A stretch of 64,000 nt of DNA, taken from NCBI GenBank assembly GCA_024742705.1, contig JANSXZ010000012.1, positions 1 to 64,000 of the forward strand, written 5' to 3'. The translations under genes and the position numbers were made by a program. Shown piece after piece: positions 57,334 through 62,284 of the stretch (position 1 is its first letter; the number at the start of each line of letters is the position of its first letter). Under the pieces are notes generated by a model. It made no database searches and had not been told where the DNA came from. It saw nothing but the letters and a program-made list of their open reading frames with translations. This DNA comes from Paracoccaceae bacterium. GTDB taxonomy: Bacteria; Pseudomonadota; Alphaproteobacteria; Rhodobacterales; Rhodobacteraceae.

Positions 57334-59697
57334 ATGCCCAAAGACGGAGGCATCGGCGCCAGTTCAAAGCGCCGCGAGGACGTCCGGTTTCTGACCGGCG
57401 CCGGAAACTACACCGATGACATCAACCTGCGCGGACAGGCCTATGTGCATTTCCTGCGTTCGGACATCGCACACGGCACCATCACCAACATCGATACCGC
57501 CGCCGCCAGCGCGATGCCCGGTGTCGTCCGCATCTTCACCGGCGCGGATTTCCAGGCGGTGGGCGGCTTGCCCTGCGGCTGGCAGATCACAGACCGTTTC
57601 GGCGAGGCGATGAAGGAACCGCGCCACCCGGTGCTGGCCGACGGCAAGGTGCGCCATGTGGGCGAACCGATCTGCGCCGTGGTGGCCGACACGCTGGAAC
57701 AGGCGCGCGACGCCGCCGAGGCGATCGTGGTCGACATCGACGAACTGCCCGCCGTGGTCGACATGGCGAAGGCGCTGACCGCCGACAGCCCCAAGGTGCA
57801 TGACGACCTGTCGGACAACATGTGCTATGACTGGGGCTTCGTCGAGGAAAACAAGGAAGCGGTGGAAGAGGCGTTCCGCAACGCGGCGCATGTGACCACC
57901 TGCGAATTGACCAACAACCGTCTGGTGGCGAACCCGATGGAGCCGCGTGTGGCGCTGGGCGACTATGACCGCAGCAGCGACAACTCGACGCTCTATACCA
58001 CCAGCCAGAACCCCCATGTGATCCGCCTGCTGATGGGCGCCTTCGTTCTGGGGATTCCCGAGCACAAGCTGCGGGTGGTCGCCCCGGATGTGGGTGGCGG
58101 CTTTGGCACCAAGATCTTCCATTATGCCGAAGAGGCGCTGTGCACCTTCGCGGCAAAGGCGCTGAACCGTCCGGTGAAATGGACCTCGACTCGCTCCGAA
58201 GCCTTCGTTTCGGATGCCCACGGCCGCGATCACGTCACCACGATCGAACTGGCGCTGGATGCCGACAACAACTTTACCGCGGTGCGCACCTCGACGCTGG
58301 CCAACATGGGGGCTTATCTGTCGACCTTCGCGCCGTCGGTTCCCACTTGGCTGCACGGCACGCTGATGGCGGGCAACTACAAGACGCCGCTGGTCTATGT
58401 GAACGTGCGCGCGGTCTTCACCAACACGGTGCCGGTGGATGCCTATCGCGGCGCGGGCCGCCCCGAGGCGACCTTCCAGCTGGAGCGGGTGATCGACAAG
58501 GCGGCGCGCGAACTGGGGGTGGATCCCATCGCGCTGCGCCGGCAGAACTTTGTCAGCGAGTTCCCCTACCAGACCCCCGTCGCGGTGGCCTACGATTCGG
58601 GCGATTTCCACCGCCTGATGGACAAGCTGGAAGCGCAGGCCGATTTCGAAGGTTTTGCCGCGCGCCGCGCCAAGAGCGAAGCCGAAGGCAAGCTGCGCGG
58701 GCTGGGCATCAACTGCTTCATCGAGGCCTGCGGCATCGCGCCGTCGAACCTGGTGGGGCAGCTGGGCGCACGCGCCGGGCTGTACGAAAGCGCAACGGTG
58801 CGTGTCAACGCGACCGGCGGGCTGGTTGTCATGACCGGCAGCCACAGCCACGGGCAAGGCCATGAAACAGCCTTTCCGCAGGTGATCGCCGAGATGATCG
58901 GGATCGACGAATCGATGATCGAGATCGTCCATGGCGATACCGCCAACACACCGATGGGCATGGGCACCTATGGCTCTCGGTCGATCGCTGTCGGCGGTTC
59001 GGCGATGGTGCGCGCGACCGAGAAGATCATCAACAAGGCCAAGAAGATCGCGGCCCACCTGATGGAAGCCTCGGAGAGCGACATCGAACTGAAGGATGGC
59101 GCCTTCAGCGTGGCCGGCACCGACAAGTCGGTGGCCTGGGGCGACGTGACGCTGGCGGCCTATGTGCCGCACAACTACCCGCTGGAAGACATCGAGCCGG
59201 GCCTCGAGGAGACCGCCTTCTACGATCCGTCGAACTTCACCTATCCGGCGGGCGCCTATGCCTGCGAGGTCGAGGTCGACAAGGAAACCGGGGCGGTGAC
59301 CATCGCGAAGTTCACCACCGCCGACGACTTCGGCAACGTGATCAACCCGATGATCGTGGACGGGCAGGTGCATGGCGGTCTGGTGCAGGGCATCGGCCAG
59401 GCGCTTATGGAGAACGCCGCCTATGACGAGAACGGCCAGCTGCTGAGCGCGTCCTACATGGATTACGCGATGCCGCGGGCCTCGGATGTGCCGATGTTCA
59501 CGGTGGATCACTCGAACGGCACGCCATGCACGCACAACCCCCTGGGTGTGAAGGGCTGTGGCGAGGCCGGAGCGATCGGATCGCCGCCGACGGTGGTGAA
59601 TGCGGTTGTCGATGCGTTGCAGTCGGGTGGTCACAAGGTCGATCATGTGGACATGCCGGTTTCGCCGGCGCGGGTCTGGGCGGCGATGCAGGGCTGA
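57334..59697 (+). CDS. coxL: Molybdenum hydroxylase large subunit, form II CoxL
   Basis: Catalytic subunit of 787 residues binding molybdopterin cytosine dinucleotide. The active-site loop is A370-Y-R-G-A-G-R376, the form II signature; form I CO dehydrogenases have AYRCSFR with the Cys that bridges copper. Glu744 in [12 protein letters not shown] is the usual proton-accepting Glu near molybdenum. [10 protein letters not shown] near 250 is the MPT-binding loop, and [10 protein letters not shown] near 543-552 another cofactor-binding segment. The gene is complete. Substrate is therefore uncertain, perhaps an aldehyde or aromatic compound; CO as energy source is unlikely. Ribosome-binding site GGGAGGATCAAGAC. 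Confidence 0.95.
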
Positions 59698-59712
59698 TTG
59701 GGAACGACGGGA

Positions 59713-59765
59713 CCGGAGGGGCCAGCCCCTCCGGACCTCCCCGGGATATTTTGAGCAAGGGGAAG
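59713..59765. repeat. Two-part palindromic repeat, copy 2
   Basis: Between coxL and coxM. A perfect 10-bp inverted repeat CCGGAGGGGC-CA-GCCCCTCCGG (59713-59734) is followed by ACCTCCCCGGGATATTTTGA and GCAAGGGGAAG. It has the same plan as copies 1 and 3. The hairpin in the mRNA between coxL and coxM could lower expression of coxM relative to coxL. Confidence 0.72.
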
Positions 59766-59805
59766 CGGGCGGTGTGGCGCCCTGATCCCTTGCAGGAGGA
59801 CTGAG

Positions 59806-60597
59806 ATGTACAATTTCGAATTCGTGAAACCGGCGACTTTGGCGGATGCCGTGGCGGCGTTGTCGGGCGAGGATGCGCAGGCGCTGGGCGGCGGCCAAAC
59901 GTTGATTCCGACGCTGAAGCAGCGGCTTAACCAGCCGGGCACCCTGGTGTCGCTTCTGTCGATCCCGGAAATGGTGGGGGTCTGCAAGACCGACGATGGC
60001 GCGCTGAGCGTGGGCGGGGCGACCACCCATGCGACGGTGAGCGCCGAGGCGGCGGTGGACTTCCCGGGCCTTGCCGGGCTGGCCAGCCATATCGGCGATC
60101 CGGCGGTGCGCAACCGGGGCACGATCGGCGGTAGCCTGGCCAACAACGATCCGGCGGCGTGCTATCCGGCGGCAGCGCTGGGCACCGGGGCAACCATCGT
60201 CACCAATGCTCGCGAGATTGCGGCGGACGACTATTTCCAGGGCATGTTCGCGACCGCGCTGGAAGAGGGCGAGGTGATCACCGAGGTGCGTTTTCCGGTT
60301 CCCGAGGTGTCGAACTATCAGAAGTTCGTGCAGCCGGCGTCGCGGTTTGCACTGGTTGGCGTGTTCGTTGCCAAATATGCGGATGGCGTGCGGGTTGCGG
60401 TGACAGGTGCGTCCGAGGAGGGCGTGTTCCGCTGGAGCGAAGCGGAAGCCGCGCTTTCGGCCATTTTCTCGGTGGATGCGCTGGCCGGCCTCTCGGTTCC
60501 GGCGGATGGCATGATCGGCGACTTGCACGGCACACCGGCATATCGGGCGCATCTGGTTGCCGTAATGACACGGCGCGCGGTTGCCGCCGCGGCCTGA
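59806..60597 (+). CDS. coxM: Molybdenum hydroxylase medium subunit, FAD-binding (CoxM)
   Basis: FAD-binding subunit of 263 residues, a little under the usual 280-290, transferring electrons to an acceptor. The FAD-binding motifs are ALGGGQTLIPTLKQRL from residue 27 and TIGGSLANNDPAACYPAAAL from 106 (the TIGG...D motif), plus the C-terminal CO_deh_flav domain (SRFALVGVFVAKYADGVRVAVTGA near 181-204). Preceded by TGCAGGAGGACTGAG. Last gene of the cox operon; a strong T-tailed hairpin follows 33 bases after the stop. Confidence 0.94.
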   Translation: MYNFEFVKPATLADAVAALSGEDAQALGGGQTLIPTLKQRLNQPGTLVSLLSIPEMVGVCKTDDGALSVGGATTHATVSAEAAVDFPGLAGLASHIGDPAVRNRGTIGGSLANNDPAACYPAAALGTGATIVTNAREIAADDYFQGMFATALEEGEVITEVRFPVPEVSNYQKFVQPASRFALVGVFVAKYADGVRVAVTGASEEGVFRWSEAEAALSAIFSVDALAGLSVPADGMIGDLHGTPAYRAHLVAVMTRRAVAAAA

Positions 60598-60630
60598 CCG
60601 CAACGGCCATCGGTACATTGATAGAGATAG

Positions 60631-60659
60631 AAGGCGGGCCCCGAGCGGCCCGCCTTTTT
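60631..60659 (+). terminator. Rho-independent terminator of the cox operon
   Basis: AAGGCGGGCC (60631-60640) pairs exactly with GGCCCGCCTT (60647-60656) around a 6-base loop, followed by a T-run ending TTTTTC. Downstream of coxM on the plus strand. Confidence 0.9.
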
Positions 60660-60711
60660 CGCTTTTTCGGACCTGCGTTCGGAAGACAGCGACGGGCAGG
60701 ACGCCGGGAAT

Positions 60712-60753
60712 CAAAAAGGCCGGGTGCCACCCCTTTTGGGACGGCATCCGGCC
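60712..60753 (-). terminator. Rho-independent terminator of infC
   Basis: On the minus strand GGCCGGATGCC (60753-60743) pairs with GGCACCCGGCC (60728-60718) with one mismatch. An inner CCC/GGG extension surrounds an AAAA loop, and the stem is followed by TTTTTG. It lies 22 bases after the infC stop. Together with the cox terminator it gives a back-to-back pair between convergent genes. Confidence 0.88.
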
Positions 60754-60774
60754 AAAATGTCTGTGGTCTTGCGA

Positions 60775-61320
60775 TTACTTGGTGATCGGGCCGATCAGCA
60801 TGATCATCTGGCGGCCTTCCATCTTGGGGAAGTTTTCCACCTTGCCGATTTCCTTGGTGTCTTCGGCGACACGCTCTAGCAGTTCGCGACCGAGGTTCTG
60901 GTGCGCCATCTCGCGCCCGCGAAACCGCAGCGTGACCTTCACCTTGTCCCCGTTTTCGAGAAACTTGAAGACATTGCGCATCTTGACATCGTAGTCATGG
61001 GTGTCGGTGTTCGGGCGGAACTTGACCTCCTTGATCTCGATGATCTTCTGTTTCTTGCGGGCCTCGGCTTCGCGCTTCTGGGTTTCGTACTTGTACTTGC
61101 CGAAATCCATGATCTTGCAGACCGGGGGATTGGCGTTGGGCGAGATTTCGACCAGATCGAGACCGGCCTCCTCGGCCAGTTGCATCGCTTTTGCCGGGTG
61201 AACCACGCCGACATTTTCGCCGTCGGCGCCGATCAGACGGATTTCCGGGGCGCGGATCTTGTCATTGACGCGGGGGCCTGTGTCACGTTGCGGCGGCGCG
61301 TTGTGGGGTCTGCGGGCTAT
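60775..61320 (-). CDS. infC: Translation initiation factor IF-3, apparently starting at AUA
   Basis: Initiation factor of 181 residues that binds the 30S subunit and proof-reads start-codon selection. The N-domain ([20 protein letters not shown] through [20 protein letters not shown]) leads via the Lys-rich linker [17 protein letters not shown] to the C-domain ([32 protein letters not shown]-like [13 protein letters not shown]). The conserved N-terminus is in frame back to codon 61318-61320, which is ATA. Between it and the in-frame TGA upstream there is no ATG, GTG or TTG. A good site AAGGAAG lies 6 bases upstream. The first ordinary start, GTG at 61206, would lose 38 conserved residues. E. 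coli infC also uses a rare start (AUU) for autoregulation. Confidence 0.92.
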
Positions 61321-61522
61321 GTCTTGCTTCCTTCGATGGCTGCTGAATTCAGGGTGTCAAAGTAACGGGCGGGCCGTGGCACTGCAAGGCGGATTTAGGG
61401 CAATTGCAGCCAAAAGTAAGGCATTTGCAGGGGGAACCATTCGCATTCGGGGCAGTTATGTCTGTGAAGACATCGTGCCGGCCTGATGATCTGTGCGGGC
61501 ACGAACAGAAAGGATGTACGAT

Positions 61523-62284
61523 ATGAAGACGGGTCTGTGGATTGCGATTGCGGTGGCTGCTGGCGGCGCGGGTTATTACTTTTACGAGGTCGCGTCGCGC
61601 CCCGACGCATCGCTGACGGATGCGGTGGCGCCGCTGCCCGCACCGGTTGAGGCGCCCGGGCCCGGCGTTTCACTGCGCGAAGCGCCCGCGGCGCCGGAAA
61701 CGCCGACGCCTGAACCGCAGGAGGCGGCGCGCGCTGTTGTGGACGCCTTGGGTGCTGAGGCCGAGGCGCTGGCAGAGCGGGCCGAGGAGGTTGGTGGCGC
61801 GGTGGCGCGTGAGGCCGAGCAGGCGGTGGCGGCCGCCGTAGAGGCGGTGGAGGCCGGGCAGGCCAGCGCCGAGGATACGGCAGAGACCGCGCGCCGCCGG
61901 CTTGAAGCCCTTGCCGACGCCGCCGAAGCCGAGGTGCGCGAGGCGCTTGACACTGCCGTGCCGTCGCCAGACGCGCCCGAGACGCCATCACCGGCGGCGC
62001 AGGACGCGGTGGAGGAGCCGGCGCCGGGCGAGACCGAGGCCGTTGTGGCGCCCGATGCCGTCGCACCCGAGGCGCCGGCCGCGTCAGGGGACGCGGTGAC
62101 ACCGCCCGAAGTGCTTACGGCCAAGGGTTTCCGCCCCGATGCGGTGCGAGCCCTGATCGACGGCAGCGACTTGGCGGCCACCCAAAAGGCGCTGTTGAAG
62201 GCGGCGGTGCGGCAGGTGGAGGACAATCCGGCGCTGCTCGAGGGGGTGCTGGAACGCCTGCGCGCGGCGCTTCTGCCGTCGTGA
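61523..62284 (+). CDS. Membrane-anchored Ala/Glu/Pro-rich protein, unknown
   Basis: Protein of 253 residues. N-terminal membrane helix GLWIAIAVAAGGAGYYFY (residues 4-21); then a long Ala/Glu/Pro-rich region: Pro-rich near 40-70, coiled-coil-like near 75-145 (ALAERAEEVGGAVAREAEQA), Pro/Ala-rich near 150-200. A final ordered helical domain of about 50 residues, KGFRPDAVRALIDGSDLAATQKALLKAA to the end, is the likely functional part. It probably spans the periplasm. No domain recognised. ATG at 61523 follows AAAGGATGTACGAT; an upstream in-frame ATG at 61514 overlaps that site and is less likely. Convergent with the MFS gene, 1 base apart. Confidence 0.7.
   Translation: MKTGLWIAIAVAAGGAGYYFYEVASRPDASLTDAVAPLPAPVEAPGPGVSLREAPAAPETPTPEPQEAARAVVDALGAEAEALAERAEEVGGAVAREAEQAVAAAVEAVEAGQASAEDTAETARRRLEALADAAEAEVREALDTAVPSPDAPETPSPAAQDAVEEPAPGETEAVVAPDAVAPEAPAASGDAVTPPEVLTAKGFRPDAVRALIDGSDLAATQKALLKAAVRQVEDNPALLEGVLERLRAALLPS

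What the first reader, a model, noticed from the sequence alone, without database searches (positions are those of the whole stretch)
60775..61320. infC appears to start with an AUA codon
Seen: the conserved IF-3 N-terminus ([23 protein letters not shown]) is in frame from 61320 downwards and its first codon is ATA (61318-61320). An in-frame TGA lies 12 codons further up with no ATG, GTG or TTG between, and an AAGGAAG site is correctly spaced. Known: IF-3 discriminates against non-canonical starts, and E. coli infC uses AUU for self-regulation. Inference: this organism uses AUA for the same autocontrol loop.
Basis: partly seen in the sequence, partly recalled or inferred. Interest (0 to 1): 0.75.

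Follow-up and report, generated by a model that had tools for sequence, protein, structure and literature searches.

The report
IF-3 gene starting with AUA

Summary
On the minus strand infC (60775-61320) is in frame from ATA 61318-61320; after the upstream TGA (61357-61359) there is no ATG/GTG/TTG, and AAGGA (61329-61333) is well placed. It is neither an error nor a quirk of this organism. Codon 1 is ATA 145, ATC 15, CTG 2 and never ATG/GTG/TTG in 162 distinct Rhodobacteraceae infC genes, all with a Shine-Dalgarno match; the codon changed at least 14 times on their tree. A rule-based caller gives ATA/ATC/ATT in 132 of 159 alphaproteobacterial loci and 53 of 62 loci of other classes of the phylum. 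Control: infA has ATG at the matching place in 30 of 30. This is the known infC situation: AUU in E. coli, AUA in Staphylococcus aureus (PMC13009471), ATC in Streptomyces (PMC5472188). IF-3 autocontrol is therefore the best explanation, inferred and not shown. An extra finding: Arg codon 4 is AGA in 71 of 78 family genes against 1.1% of later infC Arg codons, probably to keep a weak start site open. Ordinary, well supported.

The parts
60775..61320 (-). infC, translation initiation factor IF-3, 181 aa plus stop
   Evidence: single IF-3 match in the genome
61318..61320 (-). AUA start codon
   Evidence: ATA 145 / ATC 15 / CTG 2 in 162 distinct family genes
61329..61333 (-). Shine-Dalgarno AAGGA
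   Evidence: conserved columns -13 to -9 in 84 family genes; a match of at least 4 nt in 162 of 162
61309..61311 (-). AGA at Arg codon 4, a rare codon nearly fixed in the family
   Evidence: 71 of 78 Arg codons at this place against 1.1% of 1295 Arg codons from codon 9 on in the same genes
61357..61359 (-). in-frame TGA upstream; with no canonical codon after it, it excludes a canonical start further up
60713..60753 (-). likely intrinsic terminator of infC: GC-rich hairpin followed by UUUUU
   Evidence: fold of 60708-60765: -28.8 kcal/mol, z -4.89 against shuffles; the simple scan did not list it

Best explanation
infC of this Rhodobacteraceae bacterium is translated from AUA by the initiator fMet-tRNA. 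The A at the third codon position mismatches the CAU anticodon, so IF-3 on the 30S subunit destabilises the initiation complex. When IF-3 is scarce the AUA is used more; when it is plentiful it is rejected: a negative feedback loop on IF-3 level, as for AUU in E. coli infC. A good Shine-Dalgarno site and a weakly folded start region (helped by AGA at codon 4) keep the weak start usable. Shown here: AUA is the first codon of the conserved reading frame, and the non-canonical class is conserved. Inferred: fMet initiation at AUA and IF-3-dependent repression.
For: Codon 1 is ATA 145, ATC 15, CTG 2 and canonical 0 of 162 distinct family genes, all with a Shine-Dalgarno match. Of the ten most divergent family genomes, read last, eight give ATA or ATC too. 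There are at least 14 changes of the codon on the family tree and no gene on it is canonical, although ATA to ATG is a single transition. Codon-like conservation begins at codon 1; upstream only AAGGA and CC at -2/-1 are strong, with weaker columns at -21, -20 and -17. In 11 of 155 other alphaproteobacterial loci the stop codon stands directly before the ATA or ATC, which excludes any upstream start there. Rule-based calls: ATA 90, ATC 33, ATT 9 of 159 class loci; ATT 19, ATC 22, ATA 12 of 62 loci of other classes. infA control: ATG at the MAK start in 30 of 30 (rows). E. coli infC is annotated from ATT. AUA initiation at S. aureus infC was seen by Ribo-RET (PMC13009471, passages). Streptomyces infC has ATC, and IF-3 feedback on infC is described (PMC5472188, passages).
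Against: No expression, proteomic or ribosome-profiling data for this organism. The caller used beyond the family is imperfect: on infA it put the start at a wrong codon in 3 of 30, and for one named family locus (L321) it chose a TTG 24 codons above the aligned ATA. Of 159 class loci, 14 are called ATG/GTG/TTG, 1 CTG, and 12 have no Shine-Dalgarno-backed candidate (9 of these 12 hold some canonical codon); 10 further loci called non-canonical also hold a canonical codon with a match of 4 nt or more. The same doubt applies to 2 of 84 and 3 of 80 family loci and 6 of 62 loci of other classes. So the state is not universal in the class. One family genome (L437, a 42%-identical IF-3) could not be resolved. 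infC here is not next to rplT as in E. coli, so other layers of the E. coli regulation need not apply.
Confidence: 0.9

Rival explanations
1. Translation starts at a canonical codon elsewhere in the frame (GTG 61206 downstream, or an upstream codon in relatives), and the ATA is just an internal or untranslated codon.
For: GTG 61206 opens a 143-aa ORF. In 57 of 162 family genes some ATG/GTG/TTG lies between the upstream stop and codon 1 (105 have none).
Against: A start at 61206 (codon 39) would drop the first 21 of the 70 residues matched by IF3_N (18-87) and leave 38 codons with codon-like conservation untranslated (one search shows this for codons 1-30). In this window no canonical codon lies upstream. 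Only 2 of 162 have an upstream canonical codon with a Shine-Dalgarno match of 5 nt or more. The first downstream canonical codon sits at different places in relatives, codon 11 at the earliest and most often 46, 39, 40 or 18.
Confidence: 0.03
2. The ATA is a sequencing or assembly error for ATG.
For: A single base would make it ATG; the genome is a draft of 41 contigs.
Against: 145 of 162 distinct family genes have ATA and none has ATG.
Confidence: 0.01
3. AUA is the real start, but it serves only to hold IF-3 synthesis low (a fixed weak start), without feedback by IF-3.
For: A weak start lowers expression by itself: S. aureus reporters with non-canonical starts gave about 10% of AUG in poor medium, up to 30% for one in rich medium (PMC13009471, passages). 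Nothing here measures IF-3 dependence.
Against: GTG or TTG would also be weaker than ATG, yet none of 162 uses them; the codon is always ATA, ATC or CTG. [quoted passage not shown] ATT, ATC and CTG are named in PMC6199135 (passages).
Confidence: 0.06

Closest known systems
Escherichia coli infC AUU start with IF-3 translational autocontrol
   Same: IF-3 gene; AUH start after a Shine-Dalgarno site; E. coli ATT seen
   Different: AUA in place of AUU; infC lies away from rplT here, whereas the E. coli record has thrS, infC, rpmI and rplT side by side
Staphylococcus aureus infC AUA start (PMC13009471, passages seen)
   Same: The same codon, AUA, at infC, seen there by retapamulin ribosome profiling
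   Different: A distant phylum; here the evidence is comparative only
Streptomyces infC ATC start (PMC5472188, passages seen)
   Same: AUH start of infC, described there as IF-3 feedback
   Different: ATC; in the Rhodobacteraceae ATC is the minority state (15 of 162)
Rhodobacter sphaeroides pifC (Babic et al. 1997)
   Same: IF-3 gene of a member of the same family; it should have the same kind of start
   Different: The paper is not held; I saw only citations of it in PMC6199135 and PMC2268962, which do not give its start codon. I recall, unchecked, that it discusses a rare initiation codon.

Membership tests
infC with non-canonical start under IF-3 autocontrol | the gene encodes IF-3 | tested here: met
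   TIGR00168 261.2 bits against a cut-off of 60; Pfam IF3_N and IF3_C
infC with non-canonical start under IF-3 autocontrol | first codon is AUU, AUC, AUA or CUG, with no canonical start in frame nearby upstream | tested here: met
   codon 1 non-canonical in 162 of 162 relatives
infC with non-canonical start under IF-3 autocontrol | Shine-Dalgarno site at normal spacing | tested here: met
infC with non-canonical start under IF-3 autocontrol | the non-canonical class is conserved although the codon varies | tested here: met
   at least 14 codon changes on the tree of 162, no canonical codon among them; infA control ATG in 30 of 30
infC with non-canonical start under IF-3 autocontrol | expression repressed by IF-3 and released by change to AUG | not testable with these tools
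   needs reporter fusions
E. coli-type infC operon (thrS-infC-rpmI-rplT) | infC next to rpmI and rplT | tested here: not met
   rplT lies on contig C10, infC inside C9 with other genes on both sides

The most novel reading that the evidence does not exclude
In Rhodobacteraceae the control element is more than the start codon: a family-conserved stretch AAGGA-N8-AUA-GCY-CGC-AGA-CC combines an IF-3-rejected start with a rare AGA at codon 4. The AGA would add a second layer of control, for example slow early decoding with peptidyl-tRNA drop-off on infC mRNA, so that IF-3 supply is set both at initiation and in the first codons.
Probability: 0.07. Interest if true: 0.5.

Novelty: new member of a known kind. 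Interest (0 to 1): 0.25.

Why it matters
It shows that the IF-3 feedback start is a deep, lineage-wide feature that gene callers restricted to ATG/GTG/TTG will miss or misplace. It also offers a natural set of ATA, ATC and CTG variants in one family for asking how IF-3 ranks non-cognate starts. The preference for AUA in genomes where AUA is rare inside genes (3.5% of Ile codons in 43 window ORFs) and the nearly fixed AGA at codon 4 are small open questions. The main claim itself is expected from known biology.

Tried and rejected
Sequencing error, a downstream GTG start and an upstream start were considered and rejected. A structured leader or known RNA element: Rfam gave nothing in 60500-61800 up to E = 1, no upstream column from -150 to -22 exceeds 0.4 bits in 84 family genes, and the start region folds less well than shuffles (z +1.30). 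The simple scan found no sigma-70-like promoter in 60500-61700.

That AGA at codon 4 is plain codon usage was rejected, although AGA is already commoner in codons 2-10 of window ORFs (4 of 44 Arg codons) than overall (1.8%). Openness as its cause is supported but not unique: the native start region is easier to open than synonymous recodings (mean z -1.37 over 84 genes), and changing AGA to CGC costs 1.16 kcal/mol on average over 71 genes, more in 85% and less in 14% of them. infA shows the effect too (z -0.99, 30 genes), window ORFs less (z -0.50, 43 ORFs with uncurated starts). None of these tests corrects for shared ancestry.

Literature: eight searches. No listed title is a survey of infC start codons in Alphaproteobacteria; the lists show at most 20 papers each and most subscription papers are not in the library, so this says little about print as a whole. 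Babic 1997 and the 64-codon initiation study PMC5397182 could not be opened.

Rows dropped or not read. Genomes without an IF-3 match were not counted: 8 of 295, 13 of 289, 1 of 120. Duplicates by sequence were merged: 6 of 90 family loci. The 162 distinct family genes are 84 and 77 from the 80 named loci (make-up). So about 85 of the 287 family genomes with IF-3 were read at codon level there, ranked by similarity or as listed, not at random. One search found the N-terminal pattern in 247 of 295 genomes; its table is cut, and by eye every listed match begins ATA or ATC, though the pattern also allowed ATG, GTG and TTG. 40 genomes had IF-3 but not the pattern: 30 are in the counts. The other 10 were read later and are not in the 162: ATA in six, ATC in two (in L433 it is the codon before the aligned one, by my reading of the printed sequence), one cut off by the contig end (L436), one unresolved (L437). 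A naming slip made the last count miss some loci; one search repeats it.

Full report
What is there. The minus strand of the window carries infC from 61320 down to 60775: 181 codons and TAA. The product is IF-3 by NCBIfam and by both Pfam domains; residues 16-179 align with an IF-3 chain of solved structures (8jsg_A, which I take from recall to be the E. coli protein). It is the only IF-3 match in this genome. The first codon of the conserved N-terminus is ATA. The upstream in-frame stop is TGA at 61359-61357, with no ATG, GTG or TTG after it. AAGGA lies at 61333-61329. Downstream a strong hairpin with a U-tract (60753-60713) looks like the gene's terminator. The neighbours are a divergent 263-aa ORF without a Pfam match and converging molybdopterin dehydrogenase subunit genes, so infC appears to be a single-gene unit (inference). 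rplT, which lies beside infC in E. coli, is on another contig.

Is it real? They do. Among 162 distinct Rhodobacteraceae infC genes (84 named loci, 1), codon 1 is ATA in 145, ATC in 15 and CTG in 2; none is ATG, GTG or TTG. All 162 have a Shine-Dalgarno match of at least 4 nt, in 158 at aligned spacing 6 or 7. Ten family genomes with divergent or partial IF-3 were read last: six ATA, two ATC, one cut off, one unresolved. In 84 family genes nucleotide conservation is near zero upstream of -21, strong at AAGGA and CC at -2/-1, and codon-like from codon 1 on. On a FastTree tree of infC codons 11-178 the start codon changed at least 14 times, and none of the 162 genes is canonical. ATA to ATG is one transition, so the absence of ATG points to selection against it; this is an argument from the counts, not a fitted model. 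As a control, the infA genes of 30 of these genomes have ATG at the MAK start in all 30; the rule-based caller that I use for wider comparisons picked that ATG in 27 of 30.

How far it reaches. With that caller, 132 of 159 alphaproteobacterial loci (4 of them of the window's own family, the rest mostly one per family code) get ATA (90), ATC (33) or ATT (9). 14 are called ATG, GTG or TTG, 1 CTG, and 12 have no Shine-Dalgarno-backed candidate; 10 of the non-canonical calls have a canonical competitor with a weak match (loci). In 62 loci of other classes of the phylum the calls are ATT 19, ATC 22, ATA 12, canonical 3, none 6 (loci). In 11 of 155 alphaproteobacterial loci outside the family the stop codon stands directly before the ATA or ATC, so nothing upstream could be the start there. 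The sampling is not corrected for relatedness, and about one call in ten may be misplaced.

Mechanism. In E. coli, infC begins with AUU (annotated start checked), and IF-3 autoregulates its own translation through it (PMC5472188 and the works it cites, passages). S. aureus infC begins with AUA, seen by retapamulin profiling, and the authors think autoregulation likely (PMC13009471, passages). Streptomyces uses ATC (PMC5472188). B. subtilis is given as AUU (PMC1805508, passages). In vitro, with engineered tRNAs, weaker third-position pairs are excluded by IF-3 (PMC10158994, abstract and passages). The Rhodobacteraceae case fits: the codon varies among ATA, ATC and CTG and is never canonical in the genes read. 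That IF-3 represses AUA here is inferred from these facts; I have no measurement.

A second conserved feature. Arg codon 4 is AGA in 71 of the 78 family genes with Arg there (84 genes), while AGA is 1.1% of 1295 Arg codons from codon 9 on in the same genes and 1.8% of Arg codons in 43 window ORFs, 4 of 44 in their codons 2-10. The named loci repeat it: 73 of 79 (79 of 80 loci usable). In 130 other class loci AGA is 41% and 50% of Arg at codons 3 and 4 against 4% later. The start region is easier to open than synonymous recodings (mean z -1.37, 84 genes), and AGA to CGC would on average cost 1.16 kcal/mol. infA shows a milder form (z -0.99; infC against infA p = 0.005). The simplest view is that a weak start codon needs an unstructured site and AGA supplies it in GC-rich genes. 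A separate role of the rare codon is possible but unsupported.

Verdict. Observation confirmed; AUA start very likely; autocontrol likely by analogy with known infC genes. It is one more member, and a whole family of members, of a known kind. No listed title of the eight literature searches was a survey of this, but the R. sphaeroides pifC paper of 1997, which may state it, could not be opened.

Noticed in passing
L074 and L076, codon 1 of infC: Two Rhodobacteraceae infC genes start with CTG ([10 protein letters not shown]) in place of ATA; CTG is named among codons that IF-3 inhibits (PMC6199135 passages), so the class is kept though the codon changed.
   Followed up: partly
L152, L210, L215, L229, L232 of the class sample: A minority of alphaproteobacterial infC genes, these five in genomes of 0.6-1.8 Mb, are called with ATG or GTG starts: possible losses of the feedback start in small genomes.
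   Followed up: no
window 61309-61311: AGA at Arg codon 4 of infC is nearly fixed in the family although AGA is about 1% of later Arg codons of the gene.
   Followed up: partly
L437 (G135): One family genome carries an IF-3 only 42% identical to the window's, with another N-terminus whose start could not be resolved; divergent gene or foreign contig.
   Followed up: no
window 61493-62284 (+): Divergent 263-aa ORF, rich in Ala and Glu, with an N-terminal hydrophobic stretch and no Pfam match.
   Followed up: no
window 57334-60597 (+): Molybdopterin dehydrogenase large-subunit and FAD-binding-subunit genes that converge on infC.
   Followed up: no
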